A stretch of DNA of 64,000 nucleotides from an uncultured Granulosicoccaceae bacterium. Its GTDB lineage: Bacteria > Pseudomonadota > Gammaproteobacteria > Granulosicoccales > Granulosicoccaceae. Made by a program: the position numbers and the translations under genes. Numbering within the stretch: position 1 is the first letter of the stretch; each line of letters starts with the position of its first letter. This document shows positions 8,605 to 28,727 of this stretch, one piece after another. The notes under the pieces were generated by a model. That model had not been told where the DNA came from, ran no database searches, and worked only from the letters and a program-made list of their open reading frames with translations. Where the stretch lies: the NCBI GenBank assembly GCA_938003855.1, contig CALKXD010000151.1, positions 1 through 64,000 of the forward strand, written 5' to 3'.

Positions 8605-9510
8605 CTATGGATCGCTGTAGAGCAAATCCAGCGGCCAGGCCGGGCCCAGCTCAAAGCAGCCGGCAGCGCCTCTGTCGACGCGTCCCGGGCAGCCACTTTG
8701 AAGATTTTCGTCAGGGGCGTTGTTGGCTGGGCCATGTCCGCAGGCTATGGTGTTATAGGGGATACGGTCACTGATTCGACCAGTGCCGAAGGTGGCTTTG
8801 ATATCCTCGCAGATCTGCACAACGCTCCGACGTTGCCCGTCCGGGGTACTGACCATTATCTCACCGATGCCGTGGTCGTAGTTCGTTGAATCACAGTAAC
8901 AAATGCCATCGACAGCGTAACTGTCGCGCCAACCGGCAACAGGCCTCCAGTGCCGGTTAGTTGTCTGTCTGTTGTTATGTGTCACTTCAGGGGTTGAATC
9001 TATAACGTCAGCATCGGCGGTTGCAGTGCTTGCAGCATGCACGTTTATTTCGTGTATCGACCACCAGTGATGCGCGTCGTTGCCGGTTTGCTCAACACGG
9101 ATTGAGCGGGCCGGTCGCGGTGCGAATTGAATGACCGTATTACCGTCCGGGTCACCATTGCCTGTGGCTGCCACTGTGTCCGCAGTGTGGTCGTTCTGCC
9201 CGGTGGTGATATATACAATATATGAGCGCGGTTGATCGTTATCACTCGGGGTCGATCCCAGTACGATGCGATCTATCGTTTGCAGGTGGTTCAGGTGGAC
9301 AGTAAAGGATTGCCCCGGGCTCTGTGGTTGCCGGGTGGTCCAACGAGTCGCGCTGTTGCCGTCTATGGCAAAGTGCCGGTCCGTTGTGTTGTGGCTGCTC
9401 GCCAGCGTCCAGCCGTTGCGATCTATCAGTGCCGCAGCGGCTGACTGCGAGAAAAGTATCAGGGCCAGAGGCAGGGCCGGAATCAAGCGTATTGGAGTTT
9501 GCTTTTTCAT
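8605..9510 (-). CDS. secreted discoidin (F5/8 type C) protein with six-Cys C-terminal module
   Basis: Exported 301-residue protein. A signal peptide (MKKQTPIRL, hydrophobic to about residue 26) precedes an F5/8 type C (discoidin-like) carbohydrate-binding domain at about 28-160, with features AIDGNSATRW and IDRIVLG. A short linker leads to a C-terminal module at about 194-299 with six cysteines (204, 206, 234, 257, 274, 285). The same module occurs inside the Kelch/RTX protein at 26364-28727. The frame also opens at GTG 9525, but ATG 9510 gives a cleaner signal peptide. It probably binds polysaccharide at or outside the cell surface. No catalytic motif is seen. Confidence 0.8.
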   Translation of the reverse strand: MKKQTPIRLIPALPLALILFSQSAAAALIDRNGWTLASSHNTTDRHFAIDGNSATRWTTRQPQSPGQSFTVHLNHLQTIDRIVLGSTPSDNDQPRSYIVYITTGQNDHTADTVAATGNGDPDGNTVIQFAPRPARSIRVEQTGNDAHHWWSIHEINVHAASTATADADVIDSTPEVTHNNRQTTNRHWRPVAGWRDSYAVDGICYCDSTNYDHGIGEIMVSTPDGQRRSVVQICEDIKATFGTGRISDRIPYNTIACGHGPANNAPDENLQSGCPGRVDRGAAGCFELGPAWPLDLLYSDP

Positions 9511-9682
9511 GGAGACCGGGTCCACGGATGTCGGGTCGATGCACCAGAGTATAGTCGGTGGAATCTGAACCGGGCGCGGGTCAGTGTTGCGTAGCGTTAG
9601 TCACTGCCCCCTGACCTGATCGAATGCGGTCGCTGCAGGCAGGTAACCGGATAGCCTTCGGCAACCCGGCTTGCCTCTTTTG

Positions 9683-23263: not shown

Positions 23264-25063
23264 CTATGAAGATGCTGCTTTTCTTGCGCGCCGTAGTCCA
23301 CCAAGAGCCAGCAGCGCCAGTAAGTAGAAAGTCGTGTCGAACCCGGAACCGCCTAGCGTGCACCCGGAGGTCTGGGTTCGCAGGATGATGTCGCCTGTTG
23401 GCACTGAATCATTCTGAATGGCGAATGGCTCGACAGGGTCCGGTTCAGCGAGTGGGGTCTCCGTCGCCGGACCGGTCGCGGGCAGATCGTTGCCTGGTGG
23501 ATCTACAAGCAGTGGTGCTATTGGCGCAAGTGTGCGCTGTATGGTCCACTCATCGGCTTGAAAATAACCGCTGCCCCACCAGATTTCGGTGCCTAACAGA
23601 ATGTTGGCCATGCACCAGTCGTCTTCGATTTTCACGGTGTTTGAACCGCGCCCGAAGGACTCGGCAAGCTGATGCGAGTAAGTCCGTGACCATTCTATAA
23701 AAGTGGACCAGTTGATTTGTCCGGATGTGGTGGGTTGCTGTGCCACAAAGGCGATGTATTCAGGGTCGCTTGGTTTGGTATAGACATCGTAGCCCTTGCC
23801 ATCCAGTTCTATCGAGGTGACAAAATCTCTGCTGCCGGACGGTAGCCGCTCCGGCCCTCTATCGAGCCATAGCATGATCTCGAAGCGTTGATTACTGTCG
23901 CGGCCGTTACGCACCAGAGAGTTTACGTCGCACTCGCCGTCGAGCTCATGGAAAAATGATTCCACCGCGATGTTGCGTTCGCCATGGACTGTCTGGCCGT
24001 CGTGTTCCTTGCTGCGTGTGGTGTCGTGATCACTGCTGAACGTATAGGTAAACTGGTAGAACGGCATGCTGTCGACGCGTGCCGGCAGTCCGGTTTCTGC
24101 CGGTGTTTCCAGTAATGATGATCCAGAGTACTCACCCGGTGATTTGACACCATAGATGATTTCAGGGTAAGACTTTACCAGCCAGACCTCACCGTTCACA
24201 TCGGACTCATTGCCCCAGTCATAGGTCCAGCGCGGGGTAACGTTTCCTGCAATCGAGTCAACCGAGATGCATTGCTCCCAATCGGGCAGGGTTGACGCGC
24301 AGAAGTTCCAGGCGTTGCTTGCCAGTATAAAGTCGCCAAAGGCCAGGTTGGGGTGGTACAGAACAACAGGGCAGTTGCCGCGCTCGTTCATCAATGGCTG
24401 ACCCGTCGAATCTATGGCAGGGCGCAGACACAGCGGACCATTGGTTGACCCTATCGGGCTCATGCTGCTGACGTAGGTGGTGCCCCCTGCAGGTGGGCTG
24501 GTATTGAGCGTGCTGCTGTAGCGTGGTGGTTCTGGTTCTGGTTGGGGCTCGGCAGGTGGTGAGGTGTCGTCGCTGTTTGCCAGTGCGTCGGCACTGCTAT
24601 CTCCTTCGTTGCAGGCTTCGGTGCTGATGGTCCATTGCTGTGGTGGTGAGGTGATCAGTTGTCCGTCATCGTCACCGTCGAATCCGGTCAGTACAGCGGC
24701 CACTTCGGACACAATGCCTGCTGGCGTATCCGGTTTTAACTCAAAAGACAGTGTGTGTGACGGCCAGCTGATCGCCGGTAGCCGGCTGTAGATATGGGCA
24801 TTGGTCAATTTGACCAGTTTGAAATACCGTTCCGGTGTGTTGCCGCTACTGTCGTCGGTGGCATTGCTGTCGGCCCATGCGGCGATGCGCACCACGCCAT
24901 CGCAGGCACTTTGACTCGGGCTGTCGCCGACACTGAACGATAATTCCTCTGTCTGCACCTCTGTAATTTGAGCGGTGGCTGATGAGCCTGTGGCAATAGC
25001 TGCAAGCGCAACAGCGGCTGCCAAACGCCGCGCCAGGGACGGGCTTTTTACCGTAAACGTCAC
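23264..25063 (-). CDS. GH12-like secreted beta-glucanase with JDVT-CTERM-like tail
   Basis: Exported 599-residue protein. It has a signal peptide (about 1-32), an N-terminal beta-rich domain (about 35-150), a Pro/Glu-rich linker, and a domain at about 205-515 with glycoside hydrolase family 12 hallmarks. These are WLVKSYPEIIYG, the nucleophile-type Glu (about 395) in RFEIMLWLD, and the acid/base-type Glu (about 493) in LLGTEIWWGSG. GH12 enzymes cut beta-1,4-glucans or xyloglucan. The C-terminus has a Cys followed by GFDTT, a short hydrophobic helix and an Arg-rich end, the layout of JDVT-CTERM sorting signals (Cys, D-x-T, helix, basic). GTG 25063 is preferred: AAAAGGA (complement of 25071-25077) is 7 nt away, but only 1 nt from the alternative TTG at 25069. 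Confidence 0.75.
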   Translation of the reverse strand: MTFTVKSPSLARRLAAAVALAAIATGSSATAQITEVQTEELSFSVGDSPSQSACDGVVRIAAWADSNATDDSSGNTPERYFKLVKLTNAHIYSRLPAISWPSHTLSFELKPDTPAGIVSEVAAVLTGFDGDDDGQLITSPPQQWTISTEACNEGDSSADALANSDDTSPPAEPQPEPEPPRYSSTLNTSPPAGGTTYVSSMSPIGSTNGPLCLRPAIDSTGQPLMNERGNCPVVLYHPNLAFGDFILASNAWNFCASTLPDWEQCISVDSIAGNVTPRWTYDWGNESDVNGEVWLVKSYPEIIYGVKSPGEYSGSSLLETPAETGLPARVDSMPFYQFTYTFSSDHDTTRSKEHDGQTVHGERNIAVESFFHELDGECDVNSLVRNGRDSNQRFEIMLWLDRGPERLPSGSRDFVTSIELDGKGYDVYTKPSDPEYIAFVAQQPTTSGQINWSTFIEWSRTYSHQLAESFGRGSNTVKIEDDWCMANILLGTEIWWGSGYFQADEWTIQRTLAPIAPLLVDPPGNDLPATGPATETPLAEPDPVEPFAIQNDSVPTGDIILRTQTSGCTLGGSGFDTTFYLLALLALGGLRRARKAASS

Positions 25064-25070
25064 ATTCAAA

Positions 25071-25280: not shown

Positions 25281-26141
25281 CTAACAACCCGGTGTGGGCG
25301 GGTCGCTGAAACAGCGACGCAGATTGCCGGCGACAATTAGCCCGCATGCCTCAGGGTTATCTGCGGTGCCCGACCAGACGGTCGACAGCACATTGTGTAC
25401 AAAGGCAAACCGGGCAATACGATCATAGGAGTAGCCGAGAACGTCGCTCGTTGTGCGCAGAAGCCGCCGTGTGCGAGCAAGCTGCCCGCACAATGGTGCG
25501 GATCGCAGCGGGTTGGCAAACAAGTTGGATACCTCATAGGCGGGATCGCCAAACAGACCTTTCGGGTCAATCGCCAGCCAGCCTCGATTACTTTTCATGA
25601 TGTTGTGATGATGAAGATCGCCGTGCAGAGGGACTTCGGCTTCGGTGGTTTCGAGCAGCGAGTCTGCAATGGCCGCCGCCTCTCTTATCAGGGGGTTCCG
25701 GCTGGTGCTGGCGGCGTGGTACAGATCACTGAACCGTGAGCGCAGCGGAATGAGTTCGGCAGGTGGGGCGCATCTGCGATGCTCATGAAGTTTCTGCACG
25801 ACACTGCAGATTATCGCAGAGGCTTTATCATCGTGCCCGGCGTAGACTAACTCTGCAAGCTCGCCCCCCGGGGCATATTCCAGCAACAGTGCGTCTGCGT
25901 TCGCATTGATCAGTTCTACCGCGCCATGTCCGTCGTACCAGTGCAGTAGTGCTGCTGCGTGCTTTTCGTCCTCTCTGCCAACAGCGTTGAGTACCTTCAA
26001 TACTGCCAGCATGCCATCTGCCTGCGCGGCCCGGTATAACGTTGAGGTTGCGGTGGTGGCGATCTTCTGCTCGACACGAAGCGCCCAGTCGTCGGCGATA
26101 GTGTTAATGGCCAGGGTCTCAGCTATTAGTGCAGTCAGCAT
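25281..26141 (-). CDS. aminoglycoside/hydroxyurea phosphotransferase, StrB-like kinase
   Basis: Cytoplasmic 286-residue kinase of the APH(6)/hydroxyurea antibiotic resistance kinase family, which includes streptomycin 6-kinase. Visible motifs are LLLEYAPGGELA (hinge region), the catalytic loop HGDLHHHN with its Asp, and the metal-binding DPKGLFGDPAYE. Whether it confers resistance is unknown; many chromosomal homologues phosphorylate unknown small molecules. It lies 210 bp upstream of the GH12 gene on the same strand. It starts at ATG 26141 with only a weak, closely spaced GAGG. Confidence 0.85.
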   Translation of the reverse strand: MLTALIAETLAINTIADDWALRVEQKIATTATSTLYRAAQADGMLAVLKVLNAVGREDEKHAAALLHWYDGHGAVELINANADALLLEYAPGGELAELVYAGHDDKASAIICSVVQKLHEHRRCAPPAELIPLRSRFSDLYHAASTSRNPLIREAAAIADSLLETTEAEVPLHGDLHHHNIMKSNRGWLAIDPKGLFGDPAYEVSNLFANPLRSAPLCGQLARTRRLLRTTSDVLGYSYDRIARFAFVHNVLSTVWSGTADNPEACGLIVAGNLRRCFSDPPTPGC

Positions 26142-26363: not shown

Positions 26364-28727
26364 TCAGGATTCGCAGGCCACTGCAGAGGCGTCGTTGCCC
26401 GGTGCTGTCTGGCAGTGGTCATTACCCTGGCCACCATCGATAATAGTATCGTCGCCTGATTGTCCACGTACGTCATCGTCTCCCGGTCCTCCGTAGACTC
26501 TGTCAGCGCCGTTACCGCCACGAACCGTATCATTCCCGGACTGACCGTACACCTTGTCGTTTCCATCACCGCCGGACAGGAAGCTGTCATCACCGTTGCC
26601 CCCTAGAATGAAATCGATGCCGCTCTCGCCCCAGATGCGATCATCGTCATTGCCACCGTACAGGCGATCATTACCCAGGCCGCCGTAGAGTTTGTCATTG
26701 CCATCGTCGCCGTACAGAGTGTCGTTACCACCCTGGCCGTGCAGCCGGTCGTGGCCAGTGCCGCCCGCCAGAACATCGCGCCCGTATCCACCGTATAAGC
26801 GATCACTGCCAGCGTCCCCGTTAATGTTGTCTTCGCCGTTACCGCCGTCGATCCAGTCGCTGCCGTCACCGCCATTGATGGTGTCGGTGCCGTCAAGCCC
26901 GCAGATGGTGTCGTGACCACCCAGGCCATTGATTGTGTCGCTGCCGGAGGTGCCGACAATGACATCATTGCCATTGGTGGGTGTTTGGCCGTTGGCAATC
27001 ATTACGGTAGCCGGCAAGCCGTTACACATATGCACCAGTGAGCTATCGATAGTAAACGCACGATCGTTGATGCTGCTATTACCGTGTGCATCGACCGCCT
27101 TGATCAGCAAGCGATACCGGCCATCGTTGAGGGATTGCGGTAGTGCCCAGTGTGTAGTGACAGCACCACTTGAAATATCGCTGACCGGTATAAAAGACTC
27201 CGCGACCTCGACGCCTTCCCGGTTAATGGTCTGATTGCTGTGTGTGTCAATGAGTAGATAGCTAATGTTGCGTGCAGGGCTCCCGCTTTCGTTGCTGACA
27301 GCCCCGCGCAGGTCTGAGTTACCGGAGATGGTCATGTCGTCGCTCGCCGGATGCGTAATGACGGTGTGGGTTTCAGAATCGTAAACCGTGTCCAGATTCC
27401 ACAGTGCGCCGCGTTCGAAGCAACGATAGCCGGTATAGTTTCCGGGTCTGCGCGGAATCCCCGGGCAAACCCACTCATCACTGATTTTATCCAGATTGGT
27501 GGGACCGAAACCGCACTGTACCGTATTGTAGTAGGTTCGTCCTGTCGCTCTGCCTTCACCATGTATCTGATTAACGGCATTGCACACCTGCTTGATCGTT
27601 TTAATGCCGGCCGGGGTGCTGTATTCGATGTTTGCGATTTGATGGTCGTAAGTGGTATCGCAGTAGCATTGACCGTCAACCGAGTAGGAGTCTGACCAAA
27701 TCGTTTTTTCGGTGGGTGTAGGGATAATATCTCCCTGGTAGCCTTCTAGAAATGAATCGGGCAACTGCATCACACGGGTAGAGGTCTTGGCGTTGGTTAC
27801 CGGACTGCCGCCCAGTGCCACAATAAATTGATTACCGATGATTCTGGCTGAGGGGGCCATAATGTATTCTGGCAACTCCAGCCATTTTTCTTCTGTCCAT
27901 TCGTTCAGCAACGGCTTATAGGACAGTACTTTTTTTGCCTGTGTTTTTCCACCAACGATAAAAATAGTGTTGTTGTACAGAAACGACGCGGGTTCTGAAT
28001 GGGAGCGTGGAAACGGGAGATCCGCCAGTCGCTGCCAACGGTTTTCAAGCGGATAATAAACATGGGCGTGGTCAACCTCGACGGTTGGTTCGTTGCCGCA
28101 TACATCATGGTTATTCTGCCCACCGAGTGTGTAGATATTGTTTTGAAATACGACCGTTGAAAAATGATTGCGAGCCATCGGCATGGCAGCAGAATCGGTT
28201 ATGTCGCTCCAGCCGGTATTGCCTTTTATGTCGTAGACAAAGTGATGGTCCACATCGCAGGCAGCGTTGCTGTCGAGTCCGCCAATGACATGCAGTTTGT
28301 GATTGATCACAGCAGCACCACCAGAGGCGAAAGGTGCTGGTAAATCAGGGCCGCGTCGCCAGTTGTTGTTTTTTATAGAGTAGATCCAGATTTTGTTGCT
28401 GACGATGCCGGGGTGATGGCCAATCCGACCACCGACTAACCAGACTTCGTCTTCGTATAAAACGGTACCCGCGTGCGTCACGGCGTTGGCCAGACCGATA
28501 TCGGTATCGTTGAGCAGCGTCCAGGTGTTTGTCCGGGGATCGTATTCCTCTACAGAGTTTTGCAGTTTTACCGAGGGGGAGAAGCCGTTGAAAACGATTA
28601 ACTTGCCGTTGTACAGTACCGTGCTGGTTTCGTAGCGTGGAAAACCAGCCTGACCAATATTCTGCCACTCTGCCTGGGCAACACTACAGGTACACATTGC
28701 GAGAAAGCAGAGAATATTTCTGAGCAT
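26364..28727 (-). CDS. secreted Kelch / six-Cys / RTX calcium-binding protein
   Basis: Exported 787-residue mosaic protein. It has a signal peptide (1-19, ending VAQA), five or six Kelch blades forming a propeller (about 28-310; VWLVGG, LHVIGG, IYTLGG, IFIVGG), and a six-cysteine module at 344-449 (Cys 354, 356, 382, 405, 421, 436). This module matches the C-terminus of the discoidin protein at 8605-9510. An Ig-like or linker region follows (about 455-570). About eighteen GGxGxDxLxG-type RTX nonapeptides cover 586-770, and the protein ends in a Cys-containing cap. The presence of both a Sec signal and RTX repeats is unusual, since classical RTX proteins leave through type I systems without a signal peptide; none is encoded here. 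The likely role is calcium-dependent surface or carbohydrate binding. Confidence 0.85.
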   Translation of the reverse strand: MLRNILCFLAMCTCSVAQAEWQNIGQAGFPRYETSTVLYNGKLIVFNGFSPSVKLQNSVEEYDPRTNTWTLLNDTDIGLANAVTHAGTVLYEDEVWLVGGRIGHHPGIVSNKIWIYSIKNNNWRRGPDLPAPFASGGAAVINHKLHVIGGLDSNAACDVDHHFVYDIKGNTGWSDITDSAAMPMARNHFSTVVFQNNIYTLGGQNNHDVCGNEPTVEVDHAHVYYPLENRWQRLADLPFPRSHSEPASFLYNNTIFIVGGKTQAKKVLSYKPLLNEWTEEKWLELPEYIMAPSARIIGNQFIVALGGSPVTNAKTSTRVMQLPDSFLEGYQGDIIPTPTEKTIWSDSYSVDGQCYCDTTYDHQIANIEYSTPAGIKTIKQVCNAVNQIHGEGRATGRTYYNTVQCGFGPTNLDKISDEWVCPGIPRRPGNYTGYRCFERGALWNLDTVYDSETHTVITHPASDDMTISGNSDLRGAVSNESGSPARNISYLLIDTHSNQTINREGVEVAESFIPVSDISSGAVTTHWALPQSLNDGRYRLLIKAVDAHGNSSINDRAFTIDSSLVHMCNGLPATVMIANGQTPTNGNDVIVGTSGSDTINGLGGHDTICGLDGTDTINGGDGSDWIDGGNGEDNINGDAGSDRLYGGYGRDVLAGGTGHDRLHGQGGNDTLYGDDGNDKLYGGLGNDRLYGGNDDDRIWGESGIDFILGGNGDDSFLSGGDGNDKVYGQSGNDTVRGGNGADRVYGGPGDDDVRGQSGDDTIIDGGQGNDHCQTAPGNDASAVACES
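26418..26972 (-). repeat. RTX nonapeptide-encoding repeats
   Basis: About eighteen degenerate 27-bp units encode G-G-x-G-x-D-x-[LI]-x calcium-binding turns at the C-terminus of the Kelch/RTX protein. Confidence 0.85.

What the first reader, a model, noticed from the sequence alone, without database searches (positions are those of the whole stretch)
8614..8931. Six-cysteine module at the end of the discoidin protein recurs inside the Kelch/RTX protein
Residues 194-299 of the F5/8 protein align with residues 344-449 of the Kelch/RTX protein (minus strand, 27381-27698). Shared points are W.DSY.VDG.CYCD, YDH.I, STP.G, Q[IV]C, YNT[IV].CG.GP.N, CPG and CFE.G. The spacing is C-x-C-x25-27-C-x22-C-x15-16-C-x10-14-C. 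All six cysteines are kept while the remaining architectures differ (discoidin versus Kelch and RTX). I know no named family with this pattern. It looks like a portable disulfide-stabilised extracellular domain.
Basis: seen in the sequence. Interest (0 to 1): 0.7.

Follow-up and report, generated by a model that had tools for sequence, protein, structure and literature searches.

The report
Undescribed cysteine-rich secreted domain, bacteria and phages
A protein building block of about 100 amino acids, found twice in this window, belongs to an unnamed family of exported proteins in a group of marine bacteria and in a few phages, and it carries a strictly kept set of residues that looks like a working site, probably for handling sugars outside the cell.

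Summary
The two segments align at 44% over 108 residues (E 3e-22), with six cysteines each and the stated spacing. They are two of three copies in this genome. The module is in 41 of 48 genomes searched of the same bacterial family (Granulosicoccaceae-like), is rare in wider samples, and occurs in four IMG/VR phage contigs. I found no significant match in Pfam, NCBIfam, PHROGs or the PDB. A model at pLDDT 82.7 has no PDB or BFVD fold match, so the fold may be new. New here: a tree splits the modules into two groups. In group A seven polar residues (D, D-H, N, N, D-E) are invariant in every row that covers them (58/58 to 61/61), phages included. Group B, joined to an outer-membrane-barrel-like part, keeps the cysteine scaffold but mostly loses those residues. 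That suggests a functional site. Partners are mostly glycan-binding types. Best reading: an exported, probably metal-dependent domain acting on extracellular polysaccharide; catalysis versus recognition is unresolved. Cysteines 2 and 3 are lost together in one clade and may be a disulfide pair.

The parts
8605..9525 (-). gene of copy 1: export signal + F5/8 type C domain + C-terminal module (306 aa from GTG 9525; the likely start is ATG 9510)
   Evidence: Pfam PF00754 E 9.6e-14
9433..9510 (-). signal-peptide-like N-terminus (26 residues from ATG 9510)
   Evidence: read by eye from the translation; the crude test passed this protein; no trained signal predictor was run
9046..9399 (-). F5/8 type C (discoidin) domain, residues 43-160
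8617..8949 (-). module copy 1 (group A; six Cys, all seven invariant polar residues present)
26364..28727 (-). gene of copy 2: Kelch + module + RTX repeats (787 aa)
27882..28640 (-). Kelch repeats (residues about 30-282)
27378..27713 (-). module copy 2 (group A; six Cys, all seven invariant polar residues present)
26406..26984 (-). RTX calcium-binding nonapeptide repeats (residues about 582-774; limits approximate)
   Evidence: PF00353 E 1.3e-38; outer limits follow the repeat-region hits

Best explanation
The segment is a self-contained, exported domain of about 100 residues, probably held by two or three disulfides, that belongs to an undescribed family. Shown: the family, its spread, its mix-and-match architectures and its two groups. 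Inferred: in group A (both window copies) the invariant residues D5, D20-H21, N57, N67 and D71-E72 (numbering of L012) lie together on the folded scaffold as one metal-dependent site acting on extracellular polysaccharide; F5/8, CBM10 or malectin partners hold the protein on the glycan; group B is a version without the site at the N-terminus of an outer-membrane protein; phages carry the same kit to act on host surface glycan. Forced to choose, I favour catalysis (hydrolase or lyase type) over pure recognition, narrowly. The stated confidence is for 'polar, probably metal-type site acting on extracellular carbohydrate, by cutting or gripping', so it overlaps the first rival; within it I put cutting at about 0.3 and gripping at about 0.25. 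That the family itself is real I hold at 0.97.
For: Seven polar residues are invariant in group A: D5 58/58, D20 58/58, H21 58/58, N57 61/61, N67 61/61, D71 60/60, E72 60/60. In group B the same residue is found at D5 0/22, D20 3/27, N67 4/26, D71 2/23 and E72 4/23, and at H21 and N57 other residues lead, while S6, C13, C15, G33, C41, Q60, C61, G62, C75, C86 and W93 are kept in every B row that covers them. The seven hold in the four phage copies and in the copies L011, L012 and L014 from Bdellovibrionota and Myxococcota-type genomes. Partners of 59 group-A proteins: F5/8 10, CBM10 9, Kelch 4, GH114 2, GH115_C 2, malectin 1. Some proteins seem to hold only the module and glycan-binding-type parts: L008 has two F5/8 stretches; L005, L006, L007 and L026 show a discoidin-like part by eye; L019 and L021 show CBM10-type repeats by motif. 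Two chromosomal members lie among genes that read by eye as polysaccharide synthesis or export (L149, L152). A GH12-type protein lies near copy 2. The model has a defined fold (pLDDT 82.7, pTM 0.75).
Against: No homologue or fold of known function was found, so nothing assigns a chemistry. Invariant residues can be structural. The two groups are separated by one deep branch of an unrooted tree with few columns, so presence versus absence of the site is a single contrast. Kelch and F5/8 parts also bind proteins or lipids (recalled).
Confidence: 0.55

Rival explanations
1. A purely non-catalytic carbohydrate-recognition (CBM- or lectin-like) module. The D/N/E residues coordinate Ca2+ and a sugar and bring partner enzymes, the cell or the phage product to a glycan. 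(This is one branch of the broader best explanation.)
For: Small size; co-occurrence with an enzyme domain (GH114 in 2 of 59, L009 among them) and with other binding domains; C-terminal copies in proteins that read by eye as lipoproteins in Myxococcota-type and Bdellovibrionota genomes; Asn/Asp/Glu are typical Ca2+ ligands (recalled).
Against: Absolute conservation of the set across phages and three phyla is unusual for a recognition site, which tends to diverge with specificity (inference). An invariant His beside Asp is not a usual Ca2+ ligand (recalled). No fold or profile match to a lectin or CBM.
Confidence: 0.3
2. A structural spacer or anchor: a disulfide-knitted plug that joins or protects modules of surface proteins and has no ligand.
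For: Group B keeps only the scaffold and precedes an outer-membrane-barrel-like region (OMP_b-brl in 13 of 26 at E <= 0.01). Cysteines 1, 4, 5 and 6 and several Gly and Trp positions are kept in both groups.
Against: Does not explain seven polar residues kept in every covering row of group A, while cysteines 2 and 3 can be lost.
Confidence: 0.12
3. A cell-wall or lysis-related function: the module holds surface proteins to the envelope, and phages use it around lysis.
For: Barrel-type partner in group B. Phage copy L065 comes shortly after a holin gene (PHROG 6384, E 1.9e-7). In the L066 stretch RIIA and RIIB lysis-inhibition genes lie about 5 kb before the module gene.
Against: In L158 the gene follows a DNA polymerase, and in L064 it lies beside helicase and DNA-polymerase genes. 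No peptidoglycan-binding family is among the 25 partner families listed, of 33 found.
Confidence: 0.06

Closest known systems
CBM_10 (PF02013)
   Same: small, cysteine-containing, repeated accessory domain of secreted proteins; found in 9 of 59 group-A proteins
   Different: the module itself has no CBM_10 match (13 members scanned); it is about 100 residues against 36 profile positions
F5/8 type C / CBM32-like discoidin (PF00754)
   Same: portable extracellular binding domain in the same proteins (10 of 59)
   Different: different sequence; all-beta jelly roll (recalled) against short hairpins and helices in the model
C-type lectin domain
   Same: words such as Y/W-N-D..C and P-x-N-N..E-D-C, Ca2+-type residues, disulfides (resemblance recalled from memory, not from a call)
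   Different: order and spacing of the motifs do not fit as I recall them, even as a circular permutation; no PDB sequence match or fold match
EGF_Tenascin (PF18720)
   Same: weak profile similarity in 5 of 13 members, best E 0.026
   Different: not significant

Membership tests
any Pfam-A family | profile match of the module over the gathering score | tested here: not met
   0 families for copy 1; best over 13 members E 0.026; in the two whole window proteins no listed match lies in the module
any NCBIfam family | profile match over the curated cut-off | tested here: not met
   two families, one of 16 members each, best E 0.044
any PHROG | significant profile match of the module | tested here: not met
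   three families, one of 16 members each, best E 0.077
C-type lectin-like domain | CTLD sequence profile or fold | tested here: not met
   PDB profile search lists 7 sequences, best E 0.48, none a lectin; Foldseek best E 4.4; no VIA-align Z of 2 or more among 21 chains. Foldseek is weak on permuted folds
CBM_10 | PF02013 match of the module itself | tested here: not met
   in L002 the best CBM_10 stretch is 411-436, after the module; none in the isolated modules
carbohydrate-binding module (functional sense) | measured binding to a glycan | not testable with these tools
   needs protein
metal-dependent hydrolase/lyase (functional sense) | catalysis dependent on the conserved residues | not testable with these tools
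   needs protein; only the conservation pattern was seen
Sde182_NH-like (PF07632), for the partner domain only | profile similarity over the domain | tested here: inconclusive
   no Pfam match to it among 6 members of A5; hhalign against one PF07632 member aligned only 31 columns around D...D.DD, probability 1.4, E 0.037; controls gave E 0.69 and 0.39

The most novel reading that the evidence does not exclude
A new, very small (about 100 aa) disulfide-stabilised secreted enzyme family with a new fold and a D/DH/N/N/DE active site acting on extracellular polysaccharide. It would be a standing part of Granulosicoccaceae surface biology and be used by several unrelated phages, with a site-less, pseudo-enzyme-like group built into an outer-membrane protein.
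Probability: 0.25. Interest if true: 0.75.

Novelty: new variant of a known kind. Interest (0 to 1): 0.5.

Why it matters
Granulosicoccus is a common alga-associated genus, and alginate lyase genes are reported in Granulosicoccaceae (passages of PMC9238374). A surface domain present in most genomes of this bacterial family, which the four libraries searched do not name, could be a missing piece of how such bacteria handle algal or their own polysaccharides. The same parts in four phage contigs suggest that phages borrowed the kit. Groups with and without the seven residues make the function of the site directly testable.

Tried and rejected
Pfam, NCBIfam, PHROGs and PDB sequence searches with single sequences and profiles gave no assignment. 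The PDB near-miss (E 0.48) is a binding component of ADP-ribosylating toxins; the alignment covers profile positions 23-84 and does not match the module's cysteines, and I treat it as chance. The C-type-lectin and DRGH-nuclease resemblances came from memory; the Pfam scan and the fold searches gave no support. Prophage origin of the six bacterial members of the Cys2/Cys3-less clade was not supported: the surroundings read as chromosomal-type genes (by eye from ORF translations, no profile scan; one of the six, L154, is only a 6.4-kb contig). The joint loss of Cys2 and Cys3 looked at first like repeated covariation, but the tree needs only one change, so it is weak evidence for their pairing. 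The partner domain as an Sde182 or nucleoside-hydrolase relative stayed inconclusive. Plasmid and INPHARED phage collections held no match. Two first viral scans found no relative. The order search returned the same 48 genomes as the family search.

Limits: wide genome searches scored at most 11-19 first-look candidates per genome, so absences there are lower bounds. The one genome-contig scan used patterns drawn from the first three copies and favours close relatives. Of the 59 proteins in A7, 58 come from the 89-ORF set and one is L158; many of these ORFs are cut by locus or contig ends, so partner counts are lower bounds. The 26 of A8 are the other group-B ORFs. Five ORFs (L117, L128, L056, L147 and L144) were left out of both. 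The tree used 80 of 89 rows (80 or more residues) and its own check warns of few columns and unresolved forks. For the residue counts all 89 rows were used, and I assigned four rows missing from the tree (L142-L145) to group B by eye.

Full report
What is there. The two segments are real and homologous: BLASTP 84.3 bits, E 3e-22, 44% over 108 residues, confined to the module.

Family and spread. A profile of the three copies finds the module in 31 of 57 genomes searched as relatives. With a broader profile, 41 of 48 genomes of the same bacterial family hold it, with up to five matches in one genome (G012, G035). Seven of the 48, among them three of the window's own genus, show none. Named members include Granulosicoccaceae MAGs and 'Chromatiales bacterium (ex Bugula neritina AB1)'. 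The latter (G401) shows the same five matched contig places as genome G012, which is in the window's own genus. Beyond the family it is rare: 4 of 369 genomes of the class, of which three are in the same family and one (G086) is not; 1 of 4 in the family of G086; 1 of 398 in a sample of the phylum, the window's own; 5 of 240 in the class of the Myxococcota locus L014; 1 of 143 in the class of the Bdellovibrionota locus L011. No plasmid record and no INPHARED phage record matched.

Phages. Four IMG/VR contigs encode it: 3300035698_001839 (L062), 3300002054_000061 (L063), 3300001202_000002 (L065) and 3300004887_000001 (L158). Nearby genes match PHROGs of different kinds: a helicase and DNA polymerase (L064, same contig as L062); RIIA and RIIB (L066, same contig as L063); an internal virion protein and a holin (L065); a DNA polymerase and exonuclease (L158). 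In L063 the module follows a Kelch-like part by eye, the same pairing as in the window; 4 of 59 group-A proteins match Kelch. That these phages infect Granulosicoccaceae is an inference; no host link was tested.

No known family. No member reaches significance in Pfam (13 members, best E 0.026), NCBIfam (16 members, best 0.044), PHROGs (16 members, best 0.077) or the PDB by profile (best 0.48). Exact motif words gave 0 papers in the held library of 5.39 million; 'domain of unknown function' with 'Granulosicoccus' gave 0. The model of copy 1 is poor (pLDDT 60.3) and its second look found no chain with Z of 2 or more among 124. With three phage rows added and a short member (L012) first, the model reaches pLDDT 82.7 and pTM 0.75, though two of the five models stay near 52: hairpin, short helix, hairpin, helix, then a long region with little regular structure. 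That model has no PDB match (best E 4.4), no BFVD match (best E 1.7) and no VIA-align match with Z of 2 or more among 21 chains. A new fold is possible but not proven; AlphaFold DB was not available.

Two groups and a conserved polar set. Of 89 distinct modules, 70 show all six cysteines; 9 have cysteines 2 and 3 both replaced; the other 10 are truncated or gapped in some cysteine columns; no row has only one of cysteines 2 and 3 replaced. A tree of 80 of them, with the root drawn at the midpoint only, splits into A (57 rows: both window copies, phages, other phyla) and B (23 rows; the 22 with a kinship label are in the window's family) at 100/98 support. In A, D5, D20, H21, N57, N67, D71 and E72 are invariant in every row that covers them (58-61 rows). 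In B they are mostly replaced (D5 0/22, D20 3/27, N67 4/26, D71 2/23, E72 4/23), while all six cysteines, G33, Q60, G62 and W93 are kept in every covering row. B proteins look alike in layout: module near the N-terminus, a variable linker, and a conserved C-terminal part that matches OMP_b-brl in 13 of 26. A functional site present in A and absent in B is the simplest reading; it is an inference from conservation.

Disulfides. The nine rows without Cys2 and Cys3 form one side of a branch (96/93 support) that holds the three phage rows of the tree and six bacterial ones, so the joint change is a single event. The fourth phage copy (L158) shows the same pattern. This points to Cys2-Cys3 as a pair, weakly. 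The other pairings are open.

Function. Partners of the 59 A proteins scanned at E <= 0.001 are: F5/8 10, CBM10 9, Kelch 4, GH114 2, GH115_C 2, malectin 1, RTX 1, and Ig-like, PKD and TSP3-type repeats in one or two each. Two chromosomal members of the Cys2/Cys3-less clade lie among genes that read by eye as polysaccharide synthesis or export (L149, L152); the other four do not (L150, L151, L153, L154). Near window copy 2 is a protein with a GH12-like region; the genes scanned beside copy 1 (a CoA-transferase, a DUF3422 protein, a LysR regulator, a transporter) say nothing about sugars. Against over-reading: Kelch and F5/8 also bind proteins and lipids (recalled), and several proteins contain another candidate enzyme. 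I therefore hold 'acts on extracellular carbohydrate through a metal-type polar site' at 0.55, with catalysis narrowly ahead of recognition.

Ecology from a paper: passages of PMC9238374 name Granulosicoccus among common alga-associated symbionts, report alginate lyase genes in MAGs of Granulosicoccaceae and the alginate export gene algE in Granulosicoccus. For PMC5041132 (Bugula neritina AB1) I saw only the search listing. That the genomes found here come from seaweed was not tested.

Noticed in passing
No significant Pfam or PDB match; six IMG/VR contigs encode it. It may be a distant nucleoside-hydrolase-like domain (inconclusive).
   Followed up: partly
L009, L015, L030, L058, L063, L075, L076, L078, L096, L097: A third small cysteine motif (C..L..A...Y...C...R.DCD) recurs in 10 of 185 ORFs searched by regular expression, bacterial and phage; PHROG 15846 weakly matches residues 568-620 of the L066 (= L063) protein at E 0.0077.
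   Followed up: no
window 23264-25069 (-): 601-aa protein with a GH12-like region (PF01670 E 4.8e-8), two genes from the Kelch/module gene.
   Followed up: no
window 25281-26141 (-): APH(6)-like small-molecule kinase (PF04655 E 2.3e-56) next to the Kelch/module gene; role unknown.
   Followed up: no
L066:6278-7366 (+): A phage-encoded dehydrogenase (PHROG 9582, E 3.9e-106) that reads by eye as IMP-dehydrogenase/GMP-reductase-like, just before the Kelch/module phage gene.
   Followed up: no
L096 (G024:C36:33390-33695) and L059 (G537:C44:24255-24560): Two module matches were reported with one stop codon inside (TAA; TAG).
   Followed up: no
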